Part shown: piece by piece, positions 4,401 to 60,000 of the stretch
Numbering within the stretch: the stretch's first letter is position 1
Layout of the letters: each line of letters opens with the position of its first letter
From: Beroe forskalii
Taxonomy: Eukaryota; Ctenophora; Nuda; Beroida; Beroidae
Length of the DNA: 64,000 nucleotides
NCBI GenBank assembly: GCA_011033025.1
Contig: WFMF01000127.1
Coordinates: 248,001 to 312,000 of the forward strand
Direction of reading: 5' to 3'
Position numbers and translations under genes: made by a program
Notes under the pieces: generated by a model
What the model was told of the DNA's origin: nothing
Seen by the model: the letters and a program-made list of their open reading frames with translations, nothing else
The model's database searches: none

Positions 4401-5945
4401 GGTAAGAGTTGTTAAATAGGTTATTTTAAAAAGTACAGCAAAAAATACGATACGCTTTTCTTTCTGAAAATTGTTGATTTTTTGGGGATACAATATTGAA
4501 TATAATCAGCCGTAATTTTTCATTTTTGACAATTTTTGCACGCATTTTAATAACAGCCCTGGTACAGGTTACCGGGGAGCACGGAACTCGTACGGAAACC
4601 GGGGCTGTCACCACCAGGACTTCCACCTGGTCTTCAAGAAGATAGGCTGGGACAACAAGATACTCTACCCCCACGAGATGAACATCCGGCGCTGCGTGGG
4701 GCGGTGCCCCTTCCCCATGTCCAGCAACATTGCACACTCCACTCATGCTTTTATGCAGGTATTTGGGGGTGTTACAGGGGAGGGGGAGAGGATGGTTGTC
4801 AGGGGAGGGGGGGTGTCAGGTGGTGTGTGGGGCGGTGCCCCTTCCCCATGTCCAGCAACATCGCACATTCTACTCACGCCTTCATGCAGGTTATTAGGAG
4901 GGGGGGAGTTAGGGGTCAGGGAGAGGGGGTTGTCCGGGGGGGGGGTGCCCCTTCCCAATGTCCAGCAACATCGCACATTCTACTCACGCCTTCATGCAGG
5001 TAATTGGGGGGGTTCCCGGGGAGGGGGGTAAAGAGGGTTCTATAAAAATTTTCCCGGGGGGGGTTTCCCGGAGGGTTTCCTGGGGTTCTGGGGGGATTTC
5101 CGGGGGGGTTCGTTCAGTTCACTACTACACCGTACCTGCAAAAGAAAAGGTAAAAGAGGGTTCGATAAAAAATTCCCGGGGGAGGGGGGGGGGTTTCCTG
5201 GGGGATTTCCCGGGGGGGGTTCGTTCAGTTCACTATTACACACCGTACCTGCAAGAAAAGGTAAAAGAGGGTTCTATAAAAAATTTCTCGTGGGGGGTGT
5301 TGGGGAGGGGGTTCCCGGGGGTTTCCTGGGGGGATTCCCCGTGGAGGATTTCCCGGGGGGATTCCCCGTGGAGGATTTCCCGGGGGGATTTCCCGGGGGT
5401 GGGGGGTCGTTTAGTTCACTATTACACACCGTACCTGCAAGAAAAGGTAAAAGAGGGTTCTATAAAAAATTCCCGGGGGGGGGCACACCGTTCAGTTTAT
5501 TATTACACACCGTACCTGCAAGAAAAGGTAAAAGGGGGTTCAATAAAAATTTTGTGCTTGGTCGGACATAACAATAGTTATAATAACATGTCCTGTTTGA
5601 TCCTGCAGGCGAGATGGAACGCCCGGTTCCCGGAGGACATCACCCACCCATTACATGATGGGGGGTAATTAGGGGGGGGGGCGTTTATTAGGAGGAGGGG
5701 TGTTGTAAGGCGGAGGGGGGGGGATGTCAGGGGGAGGGGGTAGTAAGGGGAGAATTATAATTTCTGTTTTATTTCCGTTTGATCCTGCAGGCGAGATGGA
5801 ATGCCCGGTTCCTGAGGACATCACAGCACCTTGCTGTGTGGCACAAGACTACAGGTTACACTCACTGATCCTCAACGGGGCTGAAGCCAACATGTACATC
5901 AAATCGTTTGAGGATATGGTCATTACTTCCTGCCATTGTGGGTGA
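1454..5945 (+). CDS. TGF-beta superfamily ligand (BMP-like), 5' incomplete
   Basis: Secreted dimeric growth factor; such ligands bind type I/II serine-kinase receptors. Exons: 1454-1569, 2589-2678, 2949-3045, about 3505-3642, 4026-4087, 4263-4401, 4568-4758 and 5791 or 5796-5945. Most GT-AG junctions keep phase; the join from 3045 to about 3505 does not, so an exon edge there is unresolved. The prodomain has the family pattern (KLKFNVSSL, then AHLRIFVERL, later FDVW and LVVYV). RGAR just before the first mature cysteine could be the furin site. The mature part shows C-x9-FKKIGWDNKILYP, then CVGRCPFP, STHAFMQ, PCCVAQ and a terminal CHCG before TGA. The cysteine before the CC pair and the two in CHC fit the knot. 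The last exon has a frame problem (see findings). Signal-peptide exon not seen. Confidence 0.88.
2693..2813. repeat. GC-rich fold-back element (MITE-like family A), intronic
   Basis: Inverted ends built on GTTCGAACTGCAG and TGTGTGCGCGGCG surround a short AT-rich centre. It begins about 14 bases after the splice donor of the exon ending at 2678. Relatives: 3649-3807, 22779-22912, about 26851-26947, and partial copies at about 1083-1130, 10733-10815 and 33020-33066. Confidence 0.75.
3649..3807. repeat. GC-rich fold-back element (MITE-like family A), intronic
   Basis: Same inverted ends as at 2693-2813, again only a few bases after a splice donor (exon end 3642). The centre differs and holds an extra GCGCGGCGCAC arm. 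Confidence 0.75.
4826..4999 (+). repeat. Two intronic copies of the end of TGF-beta exon 4568-4758 with its splice donor
   Basis: The last ~65 bases of the Cys-knot exon (encoding CVGRCPFP to HAFMQ) are repeated at about 4826-4889 and 4937-4999. Both copies keep the CAG-GT junction (CAGGTTATT, CAGGTAATT). The first copy lacks an obvious splice acceptor of its own. Between copies the DNA is very G-rich. Confidence 0.85.
5030..5560 (+). repeat. Tandem array: G-rich segments alternating with a CCGTACCTGCAAGAAAAGG unit
   Basis: About five units contain GGTAAAAGAGGGTTC, then TATAAAAAAT, then runs of 5-9 G with CCCGGGG. The long open frame across it is compositionally biased and not a credible protein. 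The G-runs could form quadruplexes. Confidence 0.8.
5598..5648 (+). repeat. Partial copy of the last TGF-beta exon with its acceptor
   Basis: This copies the polypyrimidine-CCTGCAG acceptor and about 40 bases of the final exon at 5791, then diverges. Relative to the final exon it has one extra base in GTTCCCGGAGGAC, which puts PEDIT in frame with the strong CAG acceptor. Confidence 0.8.
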
Positions 5946-7010
5946 GAAATATATGGGGGATGTGGAAAAAGTGGAAATATGGACTGAGAACTGGGGAGGA
6001 ATGGGGACTGCAGAGATGAGGATAAAGTGGAAATATGGACTGAGGAGGGGAAGCTGTGGATTAGGGAAGTGGATTAAGGAATTATAATCAACTTACAGCA
6101 TTGAACCGTGGATTCACTGATTCAGTTCCAACCTTGCTTTAGCTTTTGGTGATTGGAATGACTGAATGAGGAATAGCAGCAGCAATCATAGCTTTGGTAT
6201 CTTGAATTGACATGACATGCGCTGAAAGATGATAGGTCATTGGTGGATGGTAGATGCATAATGGAACTGGTATTTGAATTGTCAATGAAAATTTGTTAAT
6301 TGACATGAAGAATTCTACAGAGTATGAATCATCAAAATATTATTTAAGTTAATATTTGCATCATCGAGAAATATCACTTTAAGAGAACCCTTTTAGCAAG
6401 CAATTCATAACGTGAGAATGTTTACTGAAAATCCACATCGGAAACGAATTAAAAGCGAGCCATTTCTAAAAATTACAAATTTCAAAATTATTCGAATACA
6501 CATAATGTCAATGAAGTTGATTTCAGTGTAATATTTTCTAATTCTCTACTTAAAGAATTTGTAAAATTGTTTAAAATTCTCACAAATTCTCACATAACCA
6601 TATAGGTACCTATAATTCTTTGTAATCTTTCATCAATGAACCATACGCTAAACATTCACTTTGCTCCTCTTAAATTCTAAGCATTTCCATCACTATTCCC
6701 ATCGTAATCAAGTGTAGCAAGTAAAAATATTGGCGTCTTTTTCATAATTCATAAGTGGTCACTGTTCCAAATCATGAAAAGTACAATGATCTTGAATTGA
6801 GTAATTCAAATCTTGCCGCTTTCATTGAGCTAGTTCAAGTTATATCAGCTTATCAAAGTATCAATATCTATTCCGAACAATATTCGAATGTATCATCTCA
6901 GAGTGTCAGAGTCACTGTATTCTCCATCAACTCTACACAGCTGACTGCGTCTGATGAATGCAAGCACTAAACAGGTCTGTCAACTTTTCACTATGAATTA
7001 TCTCCTATGT
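5946..7010. other. 3' flank of the TGF-beta gene
   Basis: AT-rich DNA with no recognised exon. About 5950-6060 has short G/A-rich direct repeats (GTGGAAATATGGACTGAG). The open frame at 6755-6970 resembles nothing I know. Confidence 0.5.
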
Positions 7011-7011
7011 A

Positions 7012-10893: not shown

Positions 10894-13270
10894 CTATTTG
10901 AGGAGTTTCTGAGTATCGTCTTCAGAATCTTTCCCGAAACATCCCGGCATCAGGGACTCCTTGACTTCCCGACACATGGCGCAGTACCCAATCAGCGTGA
11001 AGAGGCCCTGAGGAAGGAGGAAAATTTAAGGTAGGAACTGGAAAATAGGTGGTTAGAAGGCAGTCTTGAACCATCCTGACATCACCGGCCAGAGAAATGG
11101 TTAGTTGGGACATCAACTACAGTTTTGGGTTGCTTAAAAAACCGGTTAACCGGTTATTCAGTCTAAATGTGTGAAAATATAATATATGGGCCCATGATTT
11201 GTGAAATTCTATCAAAAACGTATCGAGATGCATCACAAACCTGAGCAGCGAGGCAGAATCGAGCACTGATTTCCACGTAGAAGTTAGCTCTCAAAGCAAA
11301 GAGAGACCAGGAGGAAACAACGCTCAGGAAGACAAGACCAGACCCAACAACATCACCCTGAGGTGAGAAATTATCTATTAATAATATCCGGAAGTTGATG
11401 AAAATGATTCGTCAAAATACTAAAATAATGGAGTTATGGAGAAATTATGAACAAGGAATTTCAAAGCTGGATAATATTTTGGGAGGAAAAGTCCATCTGG
11501 TGTCGGCTAACTCACCCCAAATCCCTCCTTGGCACTAGCATTTGTAATAACCAGCATGGTATAGACCAGGATGCCAACGAAGATGTAAGCAAACTGGGGG
11601 ATGGTGAGGAAGAAGAATTCCATCTCTTGATTAAACCAGCACCTGCGATAAAATATTCAAATGAGGCGAATAAAAGATCCGTTTTTTAAATCACGAGAAT
11701 AATGACGGCATATTAATTACATGTTGTCAAAAATCATAAACTCAAAGCTATCCAATTAATGGAGAAAAAATGAGATTGGTGTCAACAAGGCTTTCATAAA
11801 AAACTTACGTCTGGGCATCGAAGGGTTGTCCAAAGTTAAGAGAGCCTCGAGGTGAAGTCAACTTATTGACAACCATGAAAGCACTGGGAACAAGGAAGGC
11901 TAGGATGTACACAACAGGAATCATCTTAGGGGAGGAATGTCTTCTTCAGCGAAAAGAGAAAATGGGTGAAATGACGGGTAATAAATCTGAAAAGAAAATG
12001 GTGCCAATATATCCTATGTCAAATACTACGTAGTTTTTGCTCATGACTACTCATGAGACCAGTGCCACAAACCTTGAAACTGAACTTCTTCCCCGGTTTC
12101 AGATCGGAATCCGACTTTCCTTGGACGAACTTGCGGAGGCAAATAAACTCTACGGAAAGCCAGAGAAGAGCTGCTAGCGAGAAGGAATCAACTGAAATGA
12201 TAAAACTGGTGTCAGCGAGTAGACTGGTGTTAGTGAGTAAACTAGTGTCAGCGATTAACCGGTGTCAGCTAGTAAACTGGTGTCAGAAACAAACTGGTGT
12301 CAGCGATAAACTGGTGTCAGCGATAAACTGGTGTCAGCGATAAACTGGTGTCAGCGATAAACTGGTGTCAGCGATTAACTGGTTTCAGCGATAAACTGGT
12401 TTCACCGTTAACTGGTGTCAACGATAAACGAGTGTCAGCGGTAAACAGTAAACATTGTGAGCGATGCAACTGGTTAAACTGGTGTCATCGAGTAAACTGG
12501 TGTCAGCGAGAAAACTGGTGTCAGTGATAAAGCGATAAAATGGTGTCAGTGAGCAAACTGGTGTCAGCGATAAAGCAGCAAATTGGTGTCAACGATAAAC
12601 TGGTGTCAGCAATTAACTGGTGTCAGCGATTAACTGGTGTCAGTGAAAAAGCAGTGAACTGGTGTCAGTGATAACGGATAAACTGGTGTCAGCCATGAAC
12701 TGTTGCCAGAGAGTAAACTGGTGTCAGTGTGATAAAAACAATTAACAGTGTGAGCGATACAACTGGTTAACTGGCGTCAGCCGTCAGTGAGTAAAACAGT
12801 GTGTCAGTGTGATAGAAACTCACAAATATAGAGCATGTAGACGCAGCTGATGTTTGCTGGTGTCATCCAGAAAGCGAGGTTCATGAGTAGATGAGTACCG
12901 ACCATGGCAAATATCACGTGCAGTCGACACTGCATAAGCGGCTTCCGTCGAGTGCTGTAATTTGGGATAGGGTAAAGGTTTGAATGTAGAATAGATTAAA
13001 AACTTATCAATTATCAAAGGTGCATTATAAAGCACCTTTTTCTCAACAAAATGTATAATTTCTGAACTTCTGAAGCCGCCGGAAATAATAATTGAGTATT
13101 GGTTGAATTCTCAATATTTCTTCCTACTCGGCTTTGATGATGAGGAGGAATGAAAAGGCAAGGATTCCAATAGCCACCAAGGGTAAGATCCTTTCCAGTT
13201 CCAACATTAGAGGACCCGCAGCGTTACCCACAGTAAGGTTCCCAAACATGGCCTCAGAATAATTCCTAGT
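10894..13270 (-). CDS. Seven-transmembrane domain exons of the adhesion GPCR
   Basis: Exons, 5' to 3' on the minus strand: 13128-13270, 12824-12954, 12073-12170 (or 12173), 11809-11924, 11516-11642, 11241-11357 and 10894-11007. TM1: ILPLVAIGILAFSFLLIIK; its end (GA) joins in phase with the C opening the next exon. TM2: CRLHVIFAMVGTHLLMNLAF. TM3: LLWLSVEFICL. TM4: IPVVYILAFLVPSAFMVV. TM5: FAYIFVGILVYTMLVI. TM6: GSGLVFLSVVSSWSLFAL. TM7: AQGLFTLIGYCAMCREVK, the strongest family match (adhesion receptors typically have QGLFIF...EVR here). The cytoplasmic tail is short and acidic (KDSEDDTQKLLK, stop). Confidence 0.9.
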
Positions 13271-16200
13271 CTGGAAAAATTGGGAGTGTTGGCAATAGAG
13301 AACCATTTTTACCAGGTTTTCTTACCAAAAGAAAACATTCTCTTTGTTTGAAAAAATGAGAATAATATTCTACAAGTTACTGCTATAGTGCTATACTTAG
13401 TATCACCTGCACTACCCCGACGAACATCCTCCACCCCTCGCAGTTACACACTACGTAGTTTCCTTCCAGGGACACGGTGGTGTTAGCACACGGGTCCCTA
13501 ACCCACTGGATTGAGTCACTCTCTTCTAGTCTCTCTGAAATGATAGATCAAAGGTTAGCACATGGATCCCGAGCGCATGATCGAGCCCCCCGTCAATCAA
13601 GCGATTGGATGGAGGGACGTCCTTCAAGCTTTTCTGAGAATTGAAGAGTCGACGGCACTTGAATGAAAATTGAGGTGGGTATTATCGACAAGACAAAAAG
13701 AATTTATCATCTAGGCTGTTTTGGATGATCACTTCTGTTTCTCTGAGAATTTTGATTTTAAAACAGGCTCTGAATTTAACAAGTCATCTGTTTTCGGGTT
13801 ACGAAACTGTGAATTAAACTCTTTATTAGTCATTATATTAGTATTATCATAATCAATGAATAAAGATCTAATAGTACTGAATTTTAGGCAGGTTCGGTAC
13901 GTTTCTAGGTCCGTTAAGATCGTTTAGCTCAGCTTAGCCGGTTGTTTCGGATAGCTTAAGTTTTAGCGAAGCGTGTTATCCTCATTAACGTAGTAGATGT
14001 GAACAGCCTGCACATCACTCGATTGATTGTGATGAAGGGATTGATAAAGACATACAAATTTATTGTCTGCGTCCCAACGTTCAAAACATTTCATCAAAAG
14101 AACAGCAAAATACTGCGCGTCTTCATCAAGCCCTCCCATCAATCGAGCGATATCCACACGTTACGTTATTCCCCGTAGCAGATTTTCATTACGTTATTCC
14201 CCGTAGCAGATGTAAATAGTATGTGAATAGCAGATGTGAATTTCAACTCACCGTTTTCCCATCTTCCTATGTCATATACAGCACATGCATAATGACGGTC
14301 TTTGTTTAGCTAGATATTAGCGAGGTTTTACAGTGTGTCAACATAATTATGGGAACGGGTGTGGAGTTGAAAATGCTCCGAATTCAGAGCCTCTATAATC
14401 CTCATAAATTCACTTTTAAGTATAATTGCAAGGTTTTACAGTGTATGAACATAATAATAGAAGCAGGTGTTGAGTGGAAAATGCACCAAATTCAAATATA
14501 ATCCTCATGGAATGATAGAATCATGCGAACGTCAAACATGCATGTATGTACAGTATGTATGTAATCTGTATGTATCAGACATAAAATCGACATCTTTTAT
14601 CAAACATGCTCTACCTTTTTTGAAGAGGTGAAGTTGACACTGATTCTCTGGTCTTCCCCGGGGATAGAAGAGTTCTGTGGCAGATCCACCCACGCTACCG
14701 GACTGAAAGAAGGGGACTGATTAAAAAGAGAGGACTGAAAAGAGGGAGGTATTTTAATTTTCTGATCTCCAAACTCGATGATCTAGCAGGATTCTATCAT
14801 TCTACCCTGACCTCCGACGCGCGCATTTTTTACAACAATATACTTCAAATGCCGGGCTGTTGCGCGCTAAGGGTGGGAGAAATTCACCTTACGATGTTGC
14901 TGTTGCGCGCTAAGGGTGGGAGAAATTCACCTTACGATGTTGCTGTTGCGCGCTAAGGGTGGGAGAAATTCACCTGACAAGGTTGCTGATGTCGGTGCCC
15001 GGGAAATATTTGTTTTGTAGGACCCACAGGAAGCTACTCTTCACGAACAGATTAGCACTCAACTGCAATAAGAGGAGAAGGGTTTAAAGTGGTGGGTGGA
15101 TGGATGAAAGTTGAAAGTTGAAATCGATATTCGAATTTGCCTCAAGGCAAGATTGAGAACGTACATTTCCCTATTTCAGCACATTTTAGAACGTAGATTT
15201 CACTATTTATGATAATTATCTGTAAATTTTTACGACTTACATCAACCATCCAATTGTCGTAAACGAGGATTGAAGAAGAAAAGGCTTTGGCGTCTGTCTT
15301 CAGTTTAATCGCAGCGTAGGCGAACTTTCTGTTGAAATTCTCGCTGATCGTAGAAACCCACGCGTTGATAATATTGGCAGCAGTTACTATCAGTCTGCAG
15401 AAATAATAGTTCAATAAATATCTTAGGAAGCAAGTTGAAAACCTTTAAAGACGATATTGATACGAGAAAGTTTGAAAAACAGGAGCTTTCGAATAGCATG
15501 TGATATTCGTCGACAGCTAAATATATCCAAGTTTCGGCTTGAAACCTTCAGAAATACAGAATCAGGATGACCTATGTTTACAATCTCAATTGGCATCAAT
15601 TTTTACTGAAATCTGACAACTATACTCGCTGTAGTGATTGAAAATCAAGTTTTTCACGAACTGGTTTAATTGCGATAATTCCAGGTTTTCATTGTACCCA
15701 AACTTCCACGGGTCTAGAAGGATGTATCGCAAGGCGTTGTAACAGTGAACCTTTTCCTGCGGAAGATTTTTAAGTGTTTTTCTCGATCATAATATCTTTA
15801 AATTATATGAAATTAAAATATCATAGTTAAGTACTTTGCCGAAAGATAACATTTTATCAGCGTGGAATTGATGAGATATTCCCTGGTGAAAAACGGGTTT
15901 AAAATGCTAAGATACATTCATAATTGATTAATCATTGTTCATTTAGAAATGGCGACAAAAACCACCTTTTCCATCTGAATTGCCCCATGAATTTCTCACC
16001 ATTTTGTCGGTGATGTTAGAAGTGAACTTGTAAAGATGGTCAAGAGAAGAGAGAACTTCCTCTGCTGTCAGATTCACACTCAGCAGATACTCCAGAACCT
16101 CGCACGAAACCTTCTTTTCCTGCTGATGAGATGGAATGTTTGGTAAAATAAGTAACGAGTAAAAAGTGTGAACCGGGATATTATGCTGTAGAGAATATGG

Positions 16201-19200
16201 AATGTAGTTAGATTTCGGTCATCCCAGGGCGAATTACGCTCGTATCCCGGAGGACTCTAGAGTTCCCCGCAAATTCCATTACCGTTGCAACGATCATGCA
16301 AGGTAGTTTCAGCTTTTCAGGGAAAACCAGCAGCGATTTACGTTTGATTGATTGAAACAAGTACCCTCATGGGGCATTTATGCCGCTTTTATGAGCAGGA
16401 AAAAAGTGAAAATTTTATAATACGAGAATGTGTCAGGGGCTTTAAAATTTACTGACACAAAATTTTAGAATACCAGCTTGGAAGTTGGCTTCTAACCTCC
16501 TTCGTTTCATAGGTTGGCTCGTCTTGATCATCGTCATCAGGCACCGGTCCTTGATCATCAGGCGCCTGTCCTTGATCATCAGACGCCTGTCCTTGATCAT
16601 CAGACTCCTGTCCTTGATCATCAGGCGCCTGTCCTTGATCATCAGGCGCCTGTTCTTGATCATCAGGCGCCTGTCCTTGATCATCAGGCGCCTGTTCTTG
16701 ATCATCAGGCGCCTGTCCTTGATCATCGGGCGCCTGTCCTTGATCATCAGGCGCCTGTCCTTGATCATCGGGCACCTCTCCTTGATCATCAGGCGCCTGT
16801 TCTTGGTCACCAAGCGCTTTTCCTTGGTCTCCAGGATCAGTTTCTTCGTCATTTGTGTCAGTAGCTTTTTCGGGCAAAACGTCTTCACCCTGTAGTATGA
16901 CTTCATAAAAACAAAACGTTTGCGTACAAAAATTAAGATTTATCAACAGCAGTTTTATAACGTTTCATAGGAATTGAAACACACTTGATATAAGAAAATT
17001 GGTTTGTCAATGTCAGTTGCTCATTTAATTTTTATATTTTTTCCGCTCAGATTGCCGTGTATTTCAGTGATTTACCGCTAGCAGAAATATGACCAGCTCC
17101 CTATCAAAAAAGTGATTTACCGCTAGCGCAAGTCTGACGAGTTCCCTATCAACTTGAATCCCAGAGTACCTCACCAAATCCCACTCAGAGTAGTAACATC
17201 TCCTGGTGGCAGTTACAATGACATCATCATCTGAATCTGTGATGGCGTCATCATCAATCTGTGATGACATCATCAGGTTTGTTGTGTCATCAGGTGTTGC
17301 GGTGTCATCAGGTTTGGTGTCATCAGGATTTGCGGTGTCATCAGCTGCTGATGTGTCATCAGCTGCTGATGTGTCATCAGCTGCTGATGTGTCGTCACCA
17401 GCTGATGTGTCGTCTTCAGGTGATGTGTCATCATCAGGTGATGTGTCGTCTTCAGCTGATGTGTCGTCTTCAGCTGATGTGGTGTCATCAGCTGATGTGA
17501 TGTCATCAGGTGTTTCGTCGTCATCAGCTGATGTGTCATCATCAGGTGATGTGTCGTCATCAGTTTGATGTGTCATCAGGTGATGAGTCGTCAGGAGTTT
17601 TGGAGTCATCAGGATCAACTGTGATGGTGTTCTTGTCTCCTGGAAAAAATAATTTTCTAAAATTTCAAGTGTCAATATTCTCATTAGATGTGACTATCAT
17701 TAAGTATGTCAAGCACACATTTTTGTACGTTTCAAGAAGAACATTTTCAAGAAAAATGAAGAAACTTTATGTCACATGATTTGAATCATGAAATATCATG
17801 ACTGTTTTGGTACCGTTTTGGTAAGAAAAATGGAAGAGAGTTTGTTGTGACTCTATGATAATAAATAATCACTGTTTTGGTACCGTTTTTGGTAGTAGCC
17901 CATGTTATCTGTCCCAGGTTGCTGATGAAGGGGTTAGTTTCATTGTAGGAGTAGCAACAGGTTGGGTCGGGTTCGCACTTGGGGACTCCAGGATTGGGGC
18001 GTGTCAGGAAGACATGTAGCTGACATCAACCGCTCGTTGATCCTGGAAATTGTCAGGATATTTGTAGGAATTTTCAAAAAAATATTCAACGAATTTTACA
18101 GGAATGTTCAAGGAAATTGCAGTATTGCACGCAGGGTATGTATCTATATTGCACTCCTGTTGCAAGGGGCTAGCCGACATCAGTCCAGAAATAAGTTTAT
18201 CATGGGATGAAAATCGGACACTAGGAAACGACTAAATTCATCTGTAGCTAGAAGCGTTTCGCCCATTCTATTGATAGACGCTCGGAATCTGGAATAGATA
18301 CCTTATTACATGAAATTAAGAAAGCAGTTAATTAAGAAACCGGCAAAAGTTTCTGAGAAACTGCACTTTTTCGCGCGCGCACGTTACTTTAATTATATGT
18401 AGATTAATTTTGTAGGTAATTTCTTAGTAATTCTCTTTTAATGACTATTAATTCTACCCATTAATATTAAAAAATTTGTATTTCAAAAGCCAAAAAGGAC
18501 TCAAGTCCTCAGTTGACTTACCCTTTAGATCCTTTGCCCGGTTGAAATGTAATTTGAAAATTTTACAAACTTATAGGTAAAGAGATGTCCAGAAAAAATG
18601 TTATAAAATTTATAATCTCGATTCTATACATCTATGAAATTTTCTTAATTTATTCCAGTTCCAAAAAGTTTCTTAATGCCTTTTGTAAACAAAAAGGTTT
18701 CTTAATTTGCTGCTTTCTTATTTTCCTGCCGATTAATTAGTTGCTTACTAAATTTGTTACAATAAGGTAGGCGGTCGCAATACTAATACTTCATTAACGT
18801 TGCGCGCGGTGCCAAATTGCTGAGAATGAATGCACTTTTTTCGCGCGCGCGCGGTGTAGAGGTATACCTGTTGCAGTGCCCATCACAAGAGTTATAGGTG
18901 ACTACCTTCTCTCTGTTTAGACTTTAGGAAACCCTTTCCTGGCCCAAACTTTAACCCTAATCCTTAAATCCTTATCCAGATCCTGAGCTCTAACCAGACC
19001 CTTGCATTTGCTCAGAGTTGAAATGTAACAATATATAATGTCGTGAGATAAAAAATATGTCCAGAAATTACAGGTGATATATTGTTAACCTGGACCTGAT
19101 ATACATCCTATTTTTCGCCTTCCCAAACCACGATCTCTGCCAACCCTCCTCTATGCCTTTTTGTAAACAAAAAGGCCAATGGGGAAGGAAAATATGTCTG

Positions 19201-22200
19201 TTCCCTCACTCAGCTCATATGTGTACCTGTAGCAGTGTCCATCACAGGAGTAGGTGACAACCTTCTCTCTGTGGGGCCCCTCTGTAAAGGCAACCCTTTC
19301 GGATGCAAGGTTGTAAGATGAGGTTATGTCCGTTTCCTCATTCAGCTCATATTATGTGTACCTGAAGCAGTGCCCATCACAGGAGTAGGTGACTACCTTC
19401 TCTCTGTAAAGGTAACTCACAGCCCCCATGCTGCTCACAGGGTTCCCAGTGTTAGCGTAGTTTACAGGGATCTTACAGCAAACTGTGGGGATTTAAGCAG
19501 GGATTAATGGTGGGATTACAAAAACAGTCGGGATTGATGGACATCAGAGAGAGATCTTACAGCAAACTGAAGGGAATATAGTCAAATCATGCAATGTCAG
19601 ACGTCTCTGAAAAAATAAATCGAAATTCTCAATTTGTTAAATGCAATTGAATTGAAAAATCATTAAGTTACTCAACAGCCGGGAGTCGGGACTTATGGAT
19701 ATCATTATCATGGAAAAATACTTAATAAGTAAATAAATAATAAATAAGTAAATAAAAACATTATAAATTTTGTGGGATAGACAGTAATGCAGAGGAATGG
19801 AAAATCCTAAATAGAAGCTTTAGAAATATTTTGAGGGACCGGGCACAACCTGGGCACGCCTGTGCCCAGGTTGTGCCCCAGGTGTGCAAGACTTACAAGA
19901 TTCCACAGTGAAAACATGGTCTAGTTTCAGGCGTGTCTTATCACCAATAGTAAGCCATTCGTGATCATCCCTGTTCTTAGTAATCTGAGGCATGTCTTAG
20001 GGAGCAAGTGAAAACCTTCAATGATACGATAAAGTTTAAAATCAGAAGCTTTCGAAAATCATATGATTATCGTCGTCAGCCATTTGATAGAATCACAGAA
20101 ACTGCAGAATTGAAAGAAAAAAAATCTGCAAACGAGGCACATAAATCTATGAATCTGTGAAAAAGATCGCTTCAAGTTCGAATCAGAAGAAGTCACAAAT
20201 TTGCTTAAACTTTTAAACTTTATAATTTTGAACGAACTTGATGTAAACGAACTTGATGAAGCATGGTATCACCTGTTTGGGAAGTTTATCCTCAGGAAGC
20301 GGTGAAATCAGATCTCCCGCAATACACAGCGCATCGTTCCACCAAATGGAGAAACACGGACACTTCTTATCAAAATACACCTTCTTATCTGAAATATTAG
20401 GGCATCGCTCATGAAATACAGCTTATCCGAAACAAGCTTGTCATCACAAAGGCATCAAAGTTCTATCCTCATCAATTATTGATTTGAATTTTGAAGAAAT
20501 ACCAGTCTCTTTCGATAAGTTGAATTTCCGAAATTGCATCATCCGATGTGATTCATTTTAATAATACTTAAGCCACTCATATTTCAACTAGAGTATTGAC
20601 TTCAGAAAGATCCCCAAATTTTACCCCACATAAATACACCTCCTAAGGTATTCTGTATTGAATACTTAAACAACTCACTGTTCATGAGGTAGACCCTCCC
20701 AGTGAGGAGATCACTGCCTTGAGATTCACTTGTCGGGGAGTCCACGTAGGCTTTAATACACATCTCCGCGTTAGAGCCGTCCTCACTCGTAAATACCGGG
20801 AAGTCACAACACACTGTCGGGAATTTTAAATTCGGAAAGGCGAAATCTTCGCTTCCAAAATAAGGACCCGGAACTTTTAAATAAAGGGCGTTTTGTCGGG
20901 GATTGCTCATTTATGTAAAAGGACTCTTGTTTAGTCCTGTTTTCTATAGGTAGAAGTGCAACACATGGCTGCATCGGGAAATATTTTGAACAGAAAATGA
21001 AGAGTCTACCATCACTTCTTTGTGTCAACCCACCTTTCTTGACAGGGATGACAGTGTCGTTGTACTCTCCCCCAGTGCAGGCAATGAAGAAGTTGGTCTG
21101 GGTAATCTCACTACTGACTGGATCAGCATACTCAGCCTTGTGATCAGCCGAAAATTCAAACTGAGGAGGGGAGGGGTGAAAATATAAAATATCAATTTAG
21201 GGAGCAAGTTTGAAACATAAAATCATATGAAAATATCAATAGCAGGAGAAATCGAGCAGAAAAAAAACAAAGAAAAAATGTTGACACAAATATTGAAAGC
21301 ATAAAGATTGATAGAAGCTAACTGATCATTTCATTTTCGAAATAAGTAGCGTGAAATGCTGTACCTGGTAGCAGTCGAAATGCTACCTGTTAACCTGGTA
21401 ACAGTAACCTGGTAACAGTAACCTGGTAACAGTAACCTGGTAACAGTAACCTGGTAACAGTAACCTGGTAACAGTAACCTGGTAACAGTCAGTATTCCTG
21501 ATCCTATACTCCACCACAGTCCCATCAGCAATGTGGGTGTAGTAGGTTTTAGGGTTATCGGAAGAGGAGTAGTCTGGGTCGGGCACTTCAAACCCGGATA
21601 AAACCTGGAAAAAGGACTTTCAGAGTAGTACCGATGCGGACAATTTAGCTCAATTTCCCGATACCTTTGGGTTGCTTTTCGAGTCATCTACGAAAATAGG
21701 CGGCAAAAACAGCGAAAACAATAAAACACCAATATTAACAATTTACTTTTCTACCTCGTATTTCTCAGGGTGGAGCATCCCCTCCGTGGAGCTTAAAGGG
21801 GGCGAATAGGGGGCGAAAAGGGGCGTGGACGGAACACTCGGTGACCGGCAAGTGAATGACATATGACATCTGAACCACGTGAAAACAAACCTCGTATTTC
21901 TCTGGGTGGAGCATCCCCTCCGTCGAACACGCACCAGCTGGAATGTTGGAGGAGATGGCATCTGATCCACACCCGGGTGGGTTACGATCCCACCCGTTCA
22001 CTGTACACCTGGTATAGGGAAGTTAGTAAGTTACGGTGACATGTCGATTAGACTGTAATTAGACTGTGAATATCATTATTTTCTTATTTCTGTCGAACTC
22101 CTTCATTTCACAGTTCTCGGGCTGTTGATATGATAGCTGTCGGTGAGCCGCGCAAATTACGATTTACGCTTCAGTGGTGGCATGACCCCTCACAATTATG

Positions 22201-25200
22201 AGGCGTAAAAGTGCAGAAAAACAACCTGTAAACGTAGTTATCTTCAAACGCCGCCTCGTAAATCTCTAGTGGCGCCACCTCCAAGTTATTTCCCGGTGCA
22301 ACGTACGTCTGAAAGTGACGTTATTGTCATGGCTAATAATTATTTTATCTTGAAGGTCTTACTTCCATTTCAACAACCGTACGGCCAATGACAGGAATCG
22401 AACGCGGGGTCTTTCGATCACGAGGCAGACTGGATACCATTACACCAACTGACCAATGGCTAATTGATGACGCCATAATCATAGTTAACATGGATGAATC
22501 AGGATGATATATCAAAACAGCGTCATAGCAAATCAATGGCTTCACCTGAGAGTAATTGTACTAGATACCGTGGAATAATATTGAAATATTCTGTATACCC
22601 TGATCTCAAACCCTGGCTCTGTTCCAAACCTGAGAGTTGTAGATAGGGTAGCGCAACACCACCCCAGGACTGACTACCAAGATATCAAAGCAAGGTTTGA
22701 GAATGTAATGATCCGTGGTGGCTGGAGGGTTCTCTTCTCGCAGCGACCTGGTGTGGAAGATCTCATAATAAACGCTTAGCGGTTACAGCTCCAACTGCTA
22801 TTTGTGCGTCTTTTGTGTGCGCAGCTTATGTTTGCACGGCGTACAAACAAGTTATTCATTGCCTATACGCCGCGTAAACTTAAGCCGCGCACAAAAAACG
22901 CGTAATAATTTTAACAGAAATTCTAAGAAGCGTAAATTGAGTAATATTATGACTTAAGTGGTGATCATAGCGAGGTTAAATCTCGAAAACAATTCTTGAG
23001 CGAGTATCTCAACCCACCTAAACCCACCTAAACCCACCTAAACCCACCAAAACCCACCTAAAAACATCGATACTGCACTGGGAACCAGAGTTTGTCAGCT
23101 CTATCAGATCAACCTCTACTGTGCCTGCAAACATAGGTTATAACAAACGACCAATCAGCGACCAGTATCATACCAATCATCTGCACTGATAAAAGCGCGC
23201 AAAAGCCGTCAATTACGCGCACTGCAAAATTCACGGCTTTATCAAGCCTCTCTTTATCAATTCGCACATACGAGTACTAACGTCACCTGGTATGATATCC
23301 ATGTCATCCGTACAGTACTGCGCAGGTGCACGTTCGTCGCATGGCAACGGGGTCACCTCACAGATGAAGGTCTTGGAGCCGGTGTTGAGGTTGGGAGGGA
23401 TTATAAGTTTTGGTTTCTGAGTGTTTGAACCCTCATCCCATGTACCGTCCTCAATCTGTGGAAGAATAAAAAACACGAATCAAACCCTGAAATTTGTAAT
23501 AACATCACAAGGACATGATTACTTAATTAATTAATTATCAAGGAACAATTATATTTAAGATTAAAATGAAATAATACCAAAAATGTTGCTAATAATTTTA
23601 CAAATGTCTGGGCATTTGATATTAGCAAAATTTCGAGAAATTCAGAGCGTATAAAATTTTTAATTATTGAAATTTAAAATTGTATGAAATTTGAAACAAC
23701 CCCAAAAAATTCGACTCACTTCGTAGGGCCCGGAGTTGTCCTGAGTGTAGGGGAACCCATCAGTGTTCCGCCAGGTCACTGCCACAGGGTACCTCAGCGA
23801 TGAAACCTGAAATATGACAGGGAACATTATACGCATGTGTGTGCAGATCGCTCGAAAAGAAGTGCTCGAATGCTCGACATGCTGGTAATAATGTTGCGAT
23901 ATACACGCCTCTTCTTGTAATAACTTTAGATACTAACGATTGCGCGCGCAACTCTACACAACTTACTTTTGCAAGCCCAAGTGCTTCCCCATGATAATGA
24001 CGTCATCAATCCATCATTAAAACCCCTGATTATGACGCAGACTCTCCCACAACTCAAAGAGTACCCGCTTACCTGCACACTGAGAGTAACCGCGACACCA
24101 GCTTGTATCGTCTGGTGATCGGGAGCCATGTGGAACACACCCAGAAACGCACGGAGTATCCCTAAATTAGGGGGAGTTATCAAAGTTACAGAGGGCATAC
24201 TCGCATACTTAACATGGTCAAGGGGGTATCCCTAAATTAGGGGAGATATGGTTTAGGGCATTTGGTAGTTGACATTTGATATGGAATACATCCAGGAACG
24301 CACCGAGTTTTTCATATGGAGGGTATGAAGGATATAGAAGGGTAATAAGTTGGCACCGGTATGCATATGGAGGTATGAAAGTTAAGACTATTTAGAGGTA
24401 CCGAAAAATGGCGGTATGGAAGTTAAGGACGGCAATATTGGTAGTGATATTTGTTGAACATAAACACAGAAACGCTTTATATATAGGGGAGTAAGGGTTT
24501 GATGACTTTACCACCTGGGGGTGCACCATACCGGTTATGCCGCCATTTATATCATCGGTTGTGTATTTGAAAGTGTATCTTGATACTTTGATATGTATGT
24601 ACAACATTTTTTGGCACTCTTGTTAGCTTCATACCTGTAAGTATCGTGGTCAAACACCGAACAGAAATAGTCGGTACTGAACTGATTCAGCTTAGCCGGT
24701 ACAGACAGCGTCGTCACCTGGAAATACAGAGAATTCAGATGAAAACAGAAGCTATAGAAGTACAGAATGTTAGGAATTAGAAAGCAAGTTCACTAAGTTT
24801 TCACTGTAACCGACCGTTCAGCAAACGTCACGAAAAACTCAAATGACGGACGGACTTGATCCCCAAGATTTAAATTTGATTTTCACACCTGAGCTAACGT
24901 TCATGTTATTATCCCAAACAATTACATTACTTTATCTTAATCAAATTAAGTCGGCATTAAATTAAGAATGTCAGATGGCCATGATGTCATGTGATGAACA
25001 TCATCACCTGAAACTTCAGTATCAACAGAGGAATGAATGTGCATCTGTCGAAATTTCTTAATAAGATGAATCATGATATATTATTTTGCAGTAGATCAAA
25101 TAGAATCTTTAGTCACATGACTCCAATTTATTAAATCAATAAGTCGACAGGACAAATAAGCGTTCATAATGATGTAACTATCTCTCCTGAAAATGGTGAA

Positions 25201-44057: not shown

Positions 44058-47000
44058 CTATTTGTTTTGCAGTGCGTTGAGCATGTTTTGTTGCTTTGTG
44101 AGTTGTTCCACCATCTTCTGCATTCTCTTCAACTCCTCGTCCTTTTCACGGATTATCTTGTCTGTGTCGTCTAGTTTGCTGCCAGGGGCTCCGCCCGTGC
44201 TCTCGTTGAGGCTCGTGTTTGTGCTGCAAAAACAATCTCTGTTGAAAAATTTTAAATCGATAACGAATATGGTTTTCAGAGTTTCTGGTTTTAATCGTGT
44301 TGATTACGTCGCAAAGTAATTTTGTCCCTCGTGACAAAACGCAAAAGAGTCGTTTAGTTGACCATAGAAGGTTAAAAGGCAGGTGGTAAAATGTGCTGAA
44401 AAATTGAAAACGTAATATGCGAACGATCACAACCTCCATATTATCATGTAGAAACTCAGACTCAGACAAATCCAGCTAAATATCGACTGACTTTATCCTA
44501 AAATCACCAGAATAACACTAACCTGTAGCTGAGTTTCTGCGACCTGAAGTTCTCGTAATGCACGTCTCGTGTGACTTCCTTCAGGTCTTGCATGTGAGTC
44601 CTGATCAGCATGTTCCGCAGCTTACCAAAGTCAGAGTGCTCCGGGTTCTCAACTGAAAATAAAGCATCAGATTTAGTCCTCTTAGGACGAGGAAAAACAA
44701 GTTATTGCTCAAAGCTGCCACTCTGTCACCTTTGAGTGATATGATTTTTCATATTTTTCATTTCGGACCTCAAAAATATTACTAAAAAGAGACGGTCGTT
44801 CGGCAATCTAGGTCTCTTATAACTCAAAATAGTTCAGATATATCAATTGCCATCGAAGAGCTCAATTCATAAGATGAAACAAATGTGTTTAGCTTCAGTG
44901 AAGCATAACTGCAGTGAAGCTTTACTTACCTTCGACAACTCCCCACGGGTACTGCCTACCGATGACTCGGTTCCCTTCCTTTACGATGAACGTGTTACTG
45001 CCGATAACCGCAAACGGTAAACTCTCCTGCGGATTAGGGATTATCACAAATTCTTTACGAGTTTATGAGGGTGAGTCGGGGACATTATAAAGTTATAGGC
45101 CAATAGGTAAGACAATATTTCAAGGATAGCAAAAAAGTCTCCTTGAAAAGTTGAATTTGGCCTCCATAAGAGTCTCAACTTAAAAGCTTCAATCCCACAC
45201 CTTTAGGTCCTTGTTCATCTCCACAAAGTCTTCATCCTCATCCGAATCACACTCAGGGAACTGGTATATCCTGATGTTGTTCTCCTCTATCTCCTCCAAA
45301 ATCTAGGAGGAATGGGTACATTAAGTGGTCTTAGGAAGGGCGGTCCTGGGTAAATGCTTAAATGTGAAAGCCTTTTAAAATTATATGGAGAAAGCACCAA
45401 TAATAATTCGAAATTGGAGGATGTAAAGTATCGCAATCGGTCCCTTGACCACTTTTGAAACGCGTCGAGTATAATTCCAAATGTCACTCACCCTAGCTTT
45501 GAGACTCCTGATCTCATTTTTGGTCAGCGTATCAGCCTTGGCTATGACTGGCACTATGTTCACTTTGTCGTGTAGTGATCGCATGAACTTGATGTCAATC
45601 GGCTTCAAACTGGAATGAATAGTTGTCAGTAGTATCTTCTAGGCGAAGTGAAACGAACTTTAAACTGTTTTTATGGTTATTTAGCTGCCATTGATCAAAT
45701 ATTCATTATTCAAATCAGAAATCTGAATTGTGGCGCAACTTCGGTCCGCCGAATTTCACATCTGTGTAACGCGCGAACAGATTTCGCTGTGAATGTGAAA
45801 ATAAGCTTCGACAATTCTACATTTTTACACAAAAGAACGCGCGTGGGCGCCAATGGAAAGACACTGGCGCTTTCGCGCGTTCCAAAAACGTACTCGATTT
45901 ACACGATGTTGCCACAATGTGACACACAGATTACGAGCAATTAGCTGAGACAATGAAATGTTAATGAGCAAGGAGAATCCACTGCCAGACCGAATAGGGA
46001 GCATGGAATTAAGGGAAATGAAGTGCATAGCAAAGGCCAAAGCAGAAAACGAAATACAGATTCTCAATTATGCGGATTTCGGACCCATACAATACCATAC
46101 ACTCATACAATACCAAAATTCAGTGAAGACTTTCCTCTTCCCAAACTTACCCCCTGCCATAAGGGCTGATAAAGTAGAGACAGCAATGTACGCGGTTGTC
46201 GACAATGTTTCGTCTGTTGAGCCCACTCTCGTCTTGAAGATAAGCCTCGTATTGGTTAGCAACGTACTTGATTATTGCTTCTTCGCTGGAAAAAATTGGG
46301 AATCACAAATATAGGAAAACTCTTTGGGAAAGAGTTAATCAGACTTATTGATGATGTCTCTACTTGAAATAATAATTTGGGCGCAGTCTTTTCGAGAAGT
46401 CTTTTCTAAAGAAAGATGTGTTAATTGTCCACAACACTAACCATTTCTCGTTATTAAGCGCGTCGCCAAACCCTGGTGTGTCAACCACAGTAAGTCTCAG
46501 TCTGACACCTTTCTCTTCTATCTCTACACAGTTAGTCTCAATAGAGACGGTCTTGTTGATGCGATCTGAGAGGGCAAGGATCTTTAAGTTTCCTGTATGG
46601 ATCTATTGGCCGCACAAGTCATTTTAGAAGATCAAAGTATTCCAAAACAACCGTATGATCTAAAGAACTCATCTCATTAGATTTTCTAAAGAACTCATTA
46701 TATTAGACTTGAAAACTCGTACAAAAGGATATCCAATACTCGAATATATATTGAAAATATTACGATGATTCCAAACCGAAAAGACTCACCCAGGGCTGGG
46801 ATGGGGGCTCGTTTGGCGTACAGATCCGTCAAGAACAGGGAGTTGATCAGCGTGCTCTTACCTAATCCACTTTCTCCTGAAAGAAGAGAAGAGTCTGATG
46901 AGTGATGAACAGGATTAAACAGGATTAAACAGGATTAAACAAATTATGATCAAATTACAATCGTAATGTCTGATCCCTATATAAAAGAAGCGTTAAAATG

Positions 47001-56043: not shown

Positions 56044-57044
56044 GATTCAGATACAGCTACAAGGGTTGGAAGGGGTTAGAAAGCTATACTAAAGGTAACT
56101 TATTTCATTTCGTCATATGAAATATAAATAAATAAGTCCTAAGTTAAATGGTAAGGTACCAGCCCAGGGTTGAAAAGTTGAAAGTTGTACTATCAGCTAG
56201 TAGGCTAACAGGATAGTTAGTAAGTCAGTTGGATAATGTAACGTGGAAATATGGCGCCGGAAACGGATTAAAAATTCAATGTGAGTTCATGATATTATTA
56301 ATAATCAATGTATGAAGCAGTAAATCACAAGCGAGAAAAGTTTCAAAAAAGTAAAAAACTTCCAAAAAACTTCCTATAGGCAAAAAATATGAGTGTAAAA
56401 ACACATTCATATTCGAAAAGTATATAATAAATTAGCTTACGTAATAACTTAAATTCTGGAACACATATAACGCCATATTAAAGTCTGAAAATTAACTGTA
56501 TATTATGCTTTTCGGTAAGGTCACTGTTACTCTTCTAGGAAGCATTTTCAGAGCTATTTGGGTCAGGATGAAAAATGAAGGCTGACTTTGAAAGTTTTAG
56601 CCAATTATTGTCAATGGTGCATCTGAATGTTTAATAACTTCTACAGTTATTAATTTACTACACAACTTAAAAATCACACAACTACCAAAAAATTATATCA
56701 GCATCATTACGAAGTCCAACGTTAAAGTTGGTGAAACAAGTTTCGATGAAACTTGAGGATCGCCCGAATTTAATCTTCAGAGCGACCCTAAAACACAGTG
56801 TAATGCGAAACCGTGTTGTTAATTAACAAGTTTGAGCAAATTTGGAATGTATCTGAGGGAATTACACCCGGATTGGAAAGTTTGAAGATGACAACATCTT
56901 GGAGAGAGCATGATGGTCGTGAATGAAAAATATTTGATTTGAAGTCACCGATTAACCATTTTAACCTATGACAATGACGTATCCTTCAATAGCTTATTCT
57001 TCATTCAGGCTCGACCTACACTTCGCAAAATGCATCCAATCTTC
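56044..57044. other. Region between the septin start and Mia40 3' end
   Basis: AT-rich, no exon recognised. Septin 5' untranslated sequence and promoter must lie here or upstream. Confidence 0.5.
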
Positions 57045-60000
57045 TTAATCTTCAGCTTCAGTATTTTCCTTTTCCTCCTCTTCTTCTTCGGTTTTGGCAG
57101 CCACAATAACAGTAGATGTAGACGGCATTCCGCCGAAATCGTCTTTACCCGACTCATACACAACCTGGTACGAAACTGGTGACGAAACGATTTCTTCTGA
57201 AGCGGAAGCTGCAAGAGGACACTCTTCTTCTTTACTTTCGCTTTCTTCCTTACTTTCGCTTTTGTTTTCTTCCTTACTTTCACTTTCTCCCCTACTTTCG
57301 CTTTCGTTTTCTTCGCTCGCAGCAATAGCTTCCTGAACTTTCTGTTCCTGTTCCGCTGCTGACAGTGCTTCCCTTTCTTCTGCCTCGTATTTAGCCCTTG
57401 CTTCCTCGGCTGCAGCCTTATTACGAGCATTCAGGTCGTCATAGAACTCCTGTAGAATGGAGAAAGAAATGAAAACAGTAAATTTTACATGTAAAAATCA
57501 AGACTTCAAAAGAAATGAACCATATTGAGAATGGTCATATTATGGTCTTACAAATCAATTTAACTTAATAAGACATCATCCTGAGAAATGAGGAAGAGAC
57601 AGTAGGAGACAATAAGAGAAGAAAGTAAAACTGCAAAAGACAGTAAGAAAAGAGACTCGTACCTCGTTCTGCTGCATGCACACGCTCATCCTAAAGAAGT
57701 TGTCCACACACTCATCCCCCTTCTCCTTTCCCTGTTCCTCATCAGAACTGCTGAACATCCAACAGGAGAAGGCTGACTTGAACTCCTCCACACAGGGTCC
57801 CTCCGTGGCAAGTCCTCCTAAGGGGGGAATAATCAGGAAATGGGATACATGAGAGGGGGATAGTTCCCTCCTCCTTCTGTGCCCAGGCCTCCTGGAAATG
57901 GGGATTACTTCAGGAAATGGGGAACATAAGGGATAGTTCTCTGAGGAGGGAACATGGGGATATATTCAGGCCTGCCATAACACGCAGGGCACAGGGTCTC
58001 CGGTCTCTTCGTGCCCAGACCTCCTGGGGAGGATGAGGGAAAATTTAAACCTAATCTAAGTACACAACTTAATCAAATTTTGTTTGATTATGTACTTGAC
58101 TCCATCTTACTATCTTACCTAGACAGGGGCACTCCCAGTTGATTTCCCCCTTCTCATTAACAGCTCCAGGGTACTGCTCGTGTACTTCATCTGACACAGC
58201 CCGCTCCTCCTTCCTCTCCTCTTCTTCCTGATGATGTCATTACCATGGTTTAGAGCGGAGAGTTTTTGATTGAAAGCCCCCGTGGGGGATTGCCGCTTTT
58301 ACGGGCGAAAAAACGAATCATATAATTAAACTTTATTGAATTGAAAAATAACACACATAATACAAATTAAAAATTCCCCCGCTGGTCATAGTCGTGGTTA
58401 ATGTAGGAGTGTAGGTACCTACAACCTGCAAAACTTTCATTTATGAATATTCCGGCTGGATTTCCTTATTCCGGCTGGATTTCCTAAGGCCGGCTATGTT
58501 ATAAAGGGGAAAATTACAACTTTGCCATTCAGTTGGTTCGCCTTTATTCTGAATTTTTAACAGATTACCTTTAACATGATTTTTGTAAGACTTAGTGGTC
58601 AGGAAACTAACAGGGGGTAGAGAGTCTTCAATATCACATCTTAGGAAAAGAAGAGGGGCCTTTGAAAAAAAGAGACCTTCTATAAAAATGGTTATCATAG
58701 GATTTTAACCAATTTTTTGTTGAACCTGGAATGGGGCTGTCTTTTGAGAGAGTAGAGGCAACTGATTTGGGAATTTCAGAAGGAAAGTGTCGGACTTTGC
58801 GCAGAAATAGGGAATGCATTGAGTGCTACGGATTCCATGAATTGTCAAAATTCCGAAGTCAGCGAAATGGGGGTTTGGTATGGCCGGGGGTTTCTCCATC
58901 CCTGTATCTATAGTTTATAAAACCGGGAACAACAGCTCGTAGTCCTTTCTTTTGTTTCCTAAAGAGAGTATCGATATTGGATTTGGCCGAAAAGCCCCAT
59001 ACCAGAGAGCAAAAGTTTAGATGAGACTGGACAAAGCTATGATATATTTGTAGCCTAGCTGTAAGGGGTAGGTGTTTTTTAATTTTATACATGACTCCCA
59101 CATAACGGGACATTTTGCTAGCAATAGTTTTTACATGCTTTGACCAATTTAACGAGTCGTCAATAACTACACCGAGAAAGCGGGCTTCTTTTACAAATTC
59201 AATGGGTGTTTTAGAAATTATTAGCGGCGAAGGTAGTTGTAAGGTTTTGGATCTGGAGAAGATCATATACTTTGTTTTCTTAAGATTTAATACAAGTCCA
59301 TTAGACTCTACCCACTGAACAAGGCTCGAGACAAGCCTGTTTAGCTGATCATTAATCGATTCTATTGTATCTGCAGTAAGTATAATGTTGGCATCGTCAG
59401 CATATAGTATAAACCTGGCAAAGTCTGCAACCTCGGGTATATCATTTATATATACTATAAATAGGAGAGGCCCCTAGAATGCTTCCTTGTGGTACTCCGT
59501 ATCTAACATCCCTTAAATCAGAATTTCCACCGTTGACAGAGACAAATTGTTTTCTGCCGCTGAGATATGACTCAATCCACTTGAGAGGGGTTCCACGGAC
59601 GCCATAATGGGATAGTTTATCAAGTAGTTTGGAGTGCTCCACTAGATCAAATGCTTTGGAGAAATCTATGAGCAGTAGGAGAGAGATTTGGCGTTTAGAG
59701 AGCGATTCAATTATTATGTTTTGGGCACTTAGAAGGGCATGTTCACAGGATCGACCTGGGCGAAATCCATATTGCATCTCGTTTAGTGAGCAGTTTGAAT
59801 CTAAGAAATTAAGCAAACGGTTATGCATAAGTTTTCAAAAAATTTTGGAGAAAGAGGAAAAGCAAGGAAATTGGCCTGTAATTAGATACACTAGATTTTG
59901 AGCCCTCTTTGTGGATTGGAATCACTCGCGGTTTTCATTTGCTCAGGAAAAACACCTTCCTGGAAAGATTTGTTAACAATGAAAGCAAGTACATCTGTAA

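What the first reader, a model, noticed from the sequence alone, without database searches (positions are those of the whole stretch)
4568..58025. Tandem repeats seeded exactly at exon-intron junctions in several genes
In at least a dozen places the DNA next to an exon edge is a tandem array of the junction itself. Donor side: 4826-4999, 14866-14973, 17810-17884 (GTACC junction), 18870-19430, 21370-21485, 21757-21798, 23009-23057, about 25297 (copy of the 25522 junction), 31200-31480, 33240-33671, perhaps 12205-12812. Acceptor side: 5598-5648, 24130-24600, 57830-58025. Unit sizes range from 10 to over 100 bp and sequences are unrelated, so this is a process, not one repeat family. Known models let AGGT-containing tandem duplications create introns or shift splice sites; here existing junctions seem to be the seed. 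Chance is unlikely given the number, but no statistics were run.
Basis: partly seen in the sequence, partly recalled or inferred. Interest (0 to 1): 0.85.

Follow-up and report, generated by a model that had tools for sequence, protein, structure and literature searches.

The report
Tandem copies of splice junctions
In this piece of animal DNA, short tandem duplications often copy the edge between an exon and its intron into the intron; this is real but was already described in lancelets as "mirages", and it looks mostly like ordinary local duplication that selection tolerates wherever the exon itself stays intact.

Summary
The interpretation, that junctions are the seed, is only weakly supported. 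With my gene models (46 donors, 48 acceptors), local duplications cover 7-10 of 46 donors and 4-5 of 48 acceptors, against 14-17% of intron positions and 4-5% of exon-interior positions. Donors are therefore hit about as often as any intron base (P 0.22-0.52) and more often than exon interiors. Counted per array, 5 of 21 intronic arrays span a donor and none an acceptor; 1.3-2.2 donor spans are expected (P 0.006-0.05), a hint at most. The best explanation is frequent local tandem duplication filtered by selection: a copy on the intron side of a donor leaves the exon intact. The same structures are published in amphioxus as "mirages" (PMC3087553, PMC3902484). The species of the window could not be determined. 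Unexplained: the TGF-beta exon copies differ from the exon only at synonymous sites (7 of 7, P 0.001).

The parts
4568..4758 (+). TGF-beta/BMP-like exon ending FMQ; donor at 4758/4759 (set by reading; the exon script ran on to 4944)
   Evidence: Pfam TGF_beta 2.4e-20 on the spliced product; GDF5 4.1e-16
4696..5027 (+). donor mirage: last 54-66 bp of the exon plus G-rich intron start, copies with donors at +131 and +241
   Evidence: TRF 4696-4947 period 131; alignment
5595..5642 (+). copy of the acceptor region of the last TGF-beta exon, 182 bp upstream of the real one at 5790
   Evidence: 93.9% over 48 bp; alignment; copy has TGC>CGC and a one-base insertion
5791..5947 (+). last TGF-beta exon; AG at 5790 or, to keep frame, at 5795
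   Evidence: Pfam TGF_beta
12203..12767 (-). CTGGTGTCA minisatellite filling the intron 12192-12823 of the 7TM gene, 11 bp from the acceptor
   Evidence: TRF, distances; 61-69% matches across both junctions
14856..14988 (-). donor mirage, 43-bp unit, 3.1 copies, includes 15 bp of exon 14974-15062
   Evidence: TRF
17785..17889 (-). donor 17883 (AACG|GTACC) and its copy 70 bp downstream
   Evidence: 82.9% over 35 bp
18862..19407 (-). donor 19361 of the IGSF gene and two copies at +135 and +494
   Evidence: 89% over 83 bp and 87% over 52 bp
19466..19575 (-). acceptor 19482 and a short copy 84 bp upstream
   Evidence: 88% over 26 bp
21391..21489 (-). donor mirage, 14-bp unit ctgttaccag|gtta, 7.1 copies, 11 bp of exon 21479-21604
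   Evidence: TRF
21753..21790 (-). copy of the last 36 bp of exon 21891-22008 plus GT, 136 bp downstream; similarity stops at the GT
   Evidence: 94.7% over 38 bp, alignment
23011..23062 (-). donor mirage, 10-bp unit, 5.2 copies, 5 bp of exon 23058-23124
   Evidence: TRF
25270..25311 (-). copy of donor 25521, 226 bp downstream
   Evidence: 71% over 42 columns; 10 of 10 last exon bases
27135..27241 (-). acceptor 27144 and a copy 78 bp upstream
   Evidence: 79% over 29 bp
31205..31476 (-). donor mirage, about 33-bp unit caagtttaca|gtgagtt, 8.1 copies by TRF, 22 bp of exon 31455-31577
   Evidence: TRF
33281..33668 (-). 24-bp array of 16.2 copies beginning 3 bp inside the intron from donor 33671
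   Evidence: TRF
57798..58040 (-). CHCHD4/Mia40-like acceptor 57817 and two degenerate copies (AG|GAGGNCTNGNCAC)
   Evidence: 74.6%, alignment
11241..15394 (-). seven-transmembrane (adhesion-GPCR-like) gene, 10 exons used; the last 7 read in one frame, the first 3 in another
   Evidence: no Pfam hit; ADGRD1 at E 0.13 only
17884..35985 (-). large immunoglobulin-superfamily gene, 22 exons plus one at 17.9 kb used; 11 consecutive exons (24111-20273) read in one frame, with frame breaks elsewhere
   Evidence: Ig domains at E 2.5e-4 or weaker
44100..46876 (-). septin gene, 8 exons in one frame; no local duplications in its introns, 0 of 15 junctions covered
   Evidence: Pfam Septin 2.3e-118
57045..58227 (-). 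CHCHD4/Mia40-like gene, 3 exons
   Evidence: Mia40 2k3j, 4.7e-19

Best explanation
These are 'mirages': tandem duplications that happen to straddle an exon-intron boundary, in genes where local tandem duplication is frequent. Shown here: about one intron base in six lies in a local direct repeat, donor junctions are covered at about the same rate, and exon interiors three to four times less. Inferred: duplications arise roughly at random; those inside exons are removed by selection unless they keep frame; those that straddle a donor survive because the exon-proximal donor is still used and the extra exon tails end up in the intron; those that straddle an acceptor are tolerated a little less, because an upstream AG copy is met first. 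Later slippage or unequal exchange expands and homogenises the copies. No function of the copies is needed.
For: Coverage over nine settings: donors 7-10 of 46, acceptors 4-5 of 48, introns 14-17%, exon interiors 4-5%; same picture with an independent 24-mer measure. The array in the CHCHD4 exon has periods 18, 24 and 42, all multiples of 3, and so have 6 of 7 periods of the arrays at 16534-16826, 17066-17152 and 17218-17595, which I take to be coding, against 6 of 21 intronic arrays. Spanning units of 10 to 131 bp, unrelated in sequence. In the longer copies outside TGF-beta, changes look neutral: 8 nonsynonymous of 14, 62% expected. The septin gene, whose introns hold no local repeats, has 0 of 15 junctions copied. 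In amphioxus, mirages are reported not to disturb regular splicing (passages of PMC3087553).
Against: Per array there is a donor excess that chance explains only marginally (5 of 21 against 1.3-2.2 expected, P 0.006-0.05). The TGF-beta copies carry only synonymous differences, which neutral copies should not (P 0.0012). Apart from the septin and parts of the TGF-beta, CHCHD4 and Ig exons, the exon models rest on open frames and splice signals, with frame breaks between some exons, and there is no RNA. The lower acceptor rate is not significant (Fisher donors against acceptors P 0.14-0.38; acceptors below introns P 0.14-0.22).
Confidence: 0.66

Rival explanations
1. The donor side of introns is a genuine hot spot for tandem duplication (for example through transcription- or splicing-linked R-loops or breaks), so junctions really are the seed.
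For: 5 of 21 intronic arrays span a donor and a sixth starts 3 bp from one, none spans an acceptor; P 0.006-0.05 against placement in the own intron; P 0.013 in the seed model and 0.017 in the exon-capped Monte Carlo, 0.02-0.03 with arrays of score 30 or more.
Against: Point coverage of donors equals that of introns (P 0.22-0.52); free placement gives P 0.30-0.49 for donors; only 21 arrays in one window; several nulls were tried without correction; no array spanning an acceptor is itself not unusual (P 0.09-0.25).
Confidence: 0.2
2. Some copies are used: they act as alternative exon ends or alternative exons and are kept by selection on their coding sequence.
For: Both TGF-beta copies encode the exon's residues, with 7 of 7 differences synonymous in each once one edge codon of the +241 copy is left out (P 0.0012 and 0.0007, not independent; with that codon 1 nonsynonymous of 8, P 0.005). 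The IGSF copy at 21.75 kb has 2 of 2 synonymous and its similarity stops at the GT. The exon script itself scored the +135 copy of donor 19361 as a weak exon (19227-19295, score 0.7).
Against: Pooled without TGF-beta the changes are neutral (8 nonsynonymous of 14); most spanning units are not multiples of 3 and would shift the frame; I saw no clear in-frame acceptor before the TGF-beta copies (my reading); no RNA data.
Confidence: 0.1
3. The arrays are an assembly artefact (false tandem expansion or merged haplotypes).
For: Mirage copy number differs between haplotypes and assemblies in amphioxus (passages of PMC3087553 and PMC3902484).
Against: Copies differ by scattered substitutions and indels and occur as near-perfect and degenerate arrays in several genes; no N in the window.
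Confidence: 0.03

Closest known systems
Amphioxus 'mirages' (minisatellite-like duplications of exon/intron boundaries; Adh3, globin genes BflGb6 and BflGb9, TnC, PGBD5)
   Same: Tandem copies of 5' or 3' exon boundaries, extra copies lying in the intron, units from about 10 to 160 bp differing between genes, AG/GT kept in many copies, homogenisation among copies.
   Different: Species of this window unknown; several genes in one 64-kb window are involved and coverage was compared with introns and exon interiors; RNA and polymorphism data exist for amphioxus, not here.
Intron gain by tandem genomic duplication of AGGT-bearing exon sequence (reviewed in PMC3443670)
   Same: Local tandem duplication that includes AG|GT-type sequence.
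   Different: There a duplication inside an exon makes a new intron; here existing introns receive copies of an existing junction and no new intron is shown.
Ordinary intronic minisatellites
   Same: Similar unit sizes, in the same introns, similar turnover.
   Different: The repeat unit here includes the end of a coding exon and the splice signal.

Membership tests
mirages | tandem duplication spans an exon/intron boundary | tested here: met
   5 TRF arrays span a donor; 7-10 of 46 donors and 4-5 of 48 acceptors crossed by local repeats
mirages | both 5' and 3' boundaries can be duplicated | tested here: met
   donors as above; acceptors 5790, 19482, 27144, 57817; no TRF array spans an acceptor
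mirages | units of about 10-160 bp, differing between genes | tested here: met
   10, 14, 33, 43 and 131 bp; offsets up to 494 bp for dispersed copies
mirages | regular mRNA splicing not disturbed | not testable with these tools
   no RNA available
mirages | copy number unstable between haplotypes or somatically | not testable with these tools
   one sequence only; no genome held
mirages | found in a cephalochordate | tested here: inconclusive
   no eukaryote collection to search; satellite and LINE scans of viral and prokaryote contigs gave no informative hit
intron gain by tandem AGGT duplication | new intron bounded by duplicated AGGT inside a formerly continuous exon | not tested
   would need an orthologue without the intron

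The most novel reading that the evidence does not exclude
The 5' splice-site side of introns is a hot spot where tandem duplication starts, in an animal that may lie outside the lancelets, and some of the resulting exon-tail copies (as in the TGF-beta gene) are kept under coding constraint, so that mirages are a standing reservoir of alternative exon ends rather than junk.
Probability: 0.12. Interest if true: 0.75.

Novelty: new member of a known kind. Interest (0 to 1): 0.36.

Why it matters
Junction-copying duplications are possible raw material for new or shifted introns and alternative exon ends, so their rate relative to plain intron duplications says whether genes are remodelled by a dedicated process or by chance plus selection. 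In this window the answer is mostly chance plus selection. The comparison used here (junction coverage against intron and exon-interior coverage, donors against acceptors, synonymous against nonsynonymous changes in the copies) can be run on any genome with annotated introns.

Tried and rejected
A first self-training exon finder predicted exons everywhere and was discarded. The second printed 139 rows; of my 48 exons 42 are identical to a row and 6 had one or both ends set by eye (two TGF-beta exons, two IGSF exons, one septin, one CHCHD4). On the gene strands 12 rows not overlapping a used exon were left out, among them 5000-5446 (score 25), which is a repeat, and the lectin gene. Two of its ten training stretches (4569-4757 and 57060-57430) were read in a wrong open frame and one (39900-40507) held a stop, so the codon table is slightly off. 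A first ungapped repeat measure gave donors 5-7 of 45 and acceptors 1 of 48 against introns 10-13%, also no donor excess; it was replaced because it missed clear copies. Searches contain errors of mine (wrong frame for two exons; one wrong codon removed), corrected. In one search edge codons were trimmed and copies with under 15 bp of exon were not used.

Idea that mirage donors are weaker: scores average 6.9 for 10 mirage donors against 8.0 (sd 2.35) for 36 others, with a matrix trained on the others, so it was not pursued. The copies listed all have GT because the search asked for it; 19 of 20 score within 3 units of the real site. Rfam (gathering threshold) and tRNA scans found nothing. Attempts to name the organism failed: 172-bp satellite in viral and prokaryote contigs (0 hits), LINE RT (none; one bacterial contig at 41%, 45 residues). 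The CHCHD4-like protein is rather divergent from 2k3j (human by recall), which I took as a mild hint against a lancelet, no more.

Literature: seven full-text searches. Of PMC3087553, PMC3902484 and PMC3443670 I saw passages; of the others only the search listing. The original Adh paper (PMC117041) is not held and is known to me only through its citation and recall. That I found no report outside cephalochordates rests on these searches alone.
Full report
What the window is. By its genes it is animal DNA; no assembly is held for it and its species could not be named. Genes recognised: a TGF-beta/BMP-like gene on the plus strand (Pfam 2.4e-20 on the spliced product; GDF5 4.1e-16); on the minus strand a seven-transmembrane gene at 11.2-15.4 kb (no Pfam hit; adhesion receptor D1 at E 0.13), a large immunoglobulin-superfamily gene from 36 kb down to 17.9 kb (Ig domains at E 2.5e-4 or weaker), a septin of 8 exons (2.3e-118; Septin-2 3.5e-117), a CHCHD4/Mia40-like gene (4.7e-19) and a UDP-L-rhamnose-synthase-like gene (3.6e-93).

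Junction list. Exon models came from an exon-chaining script with fixed splice matrices. Of its 139 rows I kept those that chain into these five genes: 48 exons, 42 unchanged and 6 with ends set by eye. The septin exons read in one frame throughout, as do the last 7 exons of the 7TM gene and 11 consecutive IGSF exons; elsewhere there are frame breaks, so some exons or ends are missing or wrong. This gives 93 junctions, 45 donors and 48 acceptors, each with GT or AG after three ends were corrected. It is not an annotation.

The observation mostly holds. Of 14 places named, 11 contain a copy of the junction; 4 of these are single extra copies, not arrays. Typical cases: the TGF-beta exon end with copies at +131 and +241; a 43-bp unit over donor 14973; a 14-bp unit ctgttaccag|gtta with seven copies over donor 21478; an about 33-bp unit over donor 31454; and an acceptor copied 182 bp upstream of 5790. 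The two abutting places and the failed one are given in the observation check.

Is it more than chance? The repeats as such are: no local match of score 17 or more appears in one block-shuffled sequence, and the shuffled rate of 24-mers with at least 19 matches prints as 0.0. Their placement at junctions is another matter. In one search, at nine combinations of threshold and overlap, 7-10 of 46 donors, 4-5 of 48 acceptors, 14-17% of intron positions and 4-5% of exon-interior positions are covered. The ten donors include 12823 and 33671, which are weak or touch the junction by 2 bp, and miss 23057. Donors do not exceed introns (P 0.22-0.52) but exceed exon interiors (P 0.00005-0.005). One search gives the same picture (24-mers with at least 18 matches: donors 6 of 45, acceptors 3 of 48, introns 14.4%, exon interiors 4.3%). 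Counting arrays instead of bases, 22 TRF arrays of score 50 or more lie in the five genes, one wholly exonic; 5 span a junction, all donors, and 3 abut one within 12 bp. Placement nulls disagree: for the donor count free placement gives P 0.30, placement with at most 25% exon 0.017, a seed-length model 0.013; for both junction types together 0.73 and 0.09. Placement within each array's own intron expects 1.3-2.2 donor spans and gives P 0.006-0.05. I read this as at most a hint of donor bias in a small sample, with several nulls tried and no correction.

How it most likely works. Local tandem duplication is common in these genes. A duplication inside an exon changes the protein: the array inside the CHCHD4 exon (57223-57314) has periods of 18, 24 and 42, and 6 of 7 periods of three arrays at 16.5-17.6 kb that I take to be coding, though outside my exon models, are multiples of 3, against 6 of 21 intronic arrays. 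A duplication across a donor leaves the first donor, and so the exon, intact, and the copies fall into the intron. A duplication across an acceptor puts an AG copy upstream of the real one, which should be tolerated less; acceptor coverage is lower, but not significantly (Fisher P 0.14-0.38). Copies then expand and homogenise: in the TGF-beta array the two copies share six differences from the exon. The duplication and selection steps are inferred; the coverage pattern is shown.

What does not fit. In the TGF-beta array all seven differences between the exon and its +131 copy over 66 bp are synonymous (P 0.0012 under a model with a constrained exon and a neutral copy). The +241 copy, not independent, has 7 of 7 over 54 bp (P 0.0007), or 7 of 8 if one more edge codon is counted (P 0.005). 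Pooled over six copies there are 8 nonsynonymous of 21 changes (P 0.023), but without TGF-beta 8 of 14, as expected for neutral copies. So one array looks as if its copies had been coding, and the others do not. In the IGSF copy at 21.75 kb the similarity covers 36 exon bases and the GT and then stops.

Comparison with what is known. Passages of PMC3087553 describe minisatellite-like duplications of exon-intron boundaries in amphioxus globin genes, at both ends of exons, with units of about 150-160 bp, cite the earlier Adh3 case with 10-72 bp units and somatic instability, call them 'mirages', and propose intron gain from them. PMC3902484 reports 60- and 108-bp repeats abutting 5' splice sites of lancelet PGBD5. 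The present case meets each of the three defining features that could be tested; whether the species is a cephalochordate could not be settled. Tandem duplication as a route to new introns is reviewed in PMC3443670 (passages); no new intron is shown here.

Verdict. A real and eye-catching pattern, already described as a kind, with modest and inconclusive evidence for seeding at donors. Its interest would rise if the species proved not to be a lancelet or if the TGF-beta copies proved to be used.

Noticed in passing
7018-10660: A 172-bp satellite lies in two oppositely oriented halves, 7018-9014 and 9090-10660. No exact match of a 24- or 27-base piece in prokaryote or viral contigs.
   Followed up: partly
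1230-1413, 12206-12726 and 12857: The minisatellite motif CTGGTGTCA recurs in two arrays 11 kb apart in opposite orientation, and once inside the 7TM exon next to the second array: 25 exact matches against 0.39 expected. The exon copy could be the origin of the intron array, or chance.
   Followed up: partly
27756-28780: A single open frame with a C-type lectin domain (Pfam 2.6e-8) lies inside the 3.2-kb intron 27145-30346 of my IGSF model, on the same strand; alternatively the IGSF model joins two genes.
   Followed up: no
16534-17595: Repeats on the minus strand (21-bp and 18/36/54-bp units, open in frame, acidic) that look like coding minisatellites.
   Followed up: partly
23992, 36813, 37013, 51928, 55347, 61779-61865: A dispersed motif with palindromic core, TGATGACGTCATTATCA: 12 matches with up to 2 mismatches in the window, 0.02 expected; in tandem 35-bp units at 55314-55454 and 61777-61879.
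   Followed up: partly
62891-63862: A UDP-L-rhamnose-synthase-like gene (best solved match 7jid, 3.6e-93).
   Followed up: no
58859-61786: A LINE-like element: endonuclease domain by Pfam, reverse transcriptase by my recall of its motifs, in several frames.
   Followed up: no
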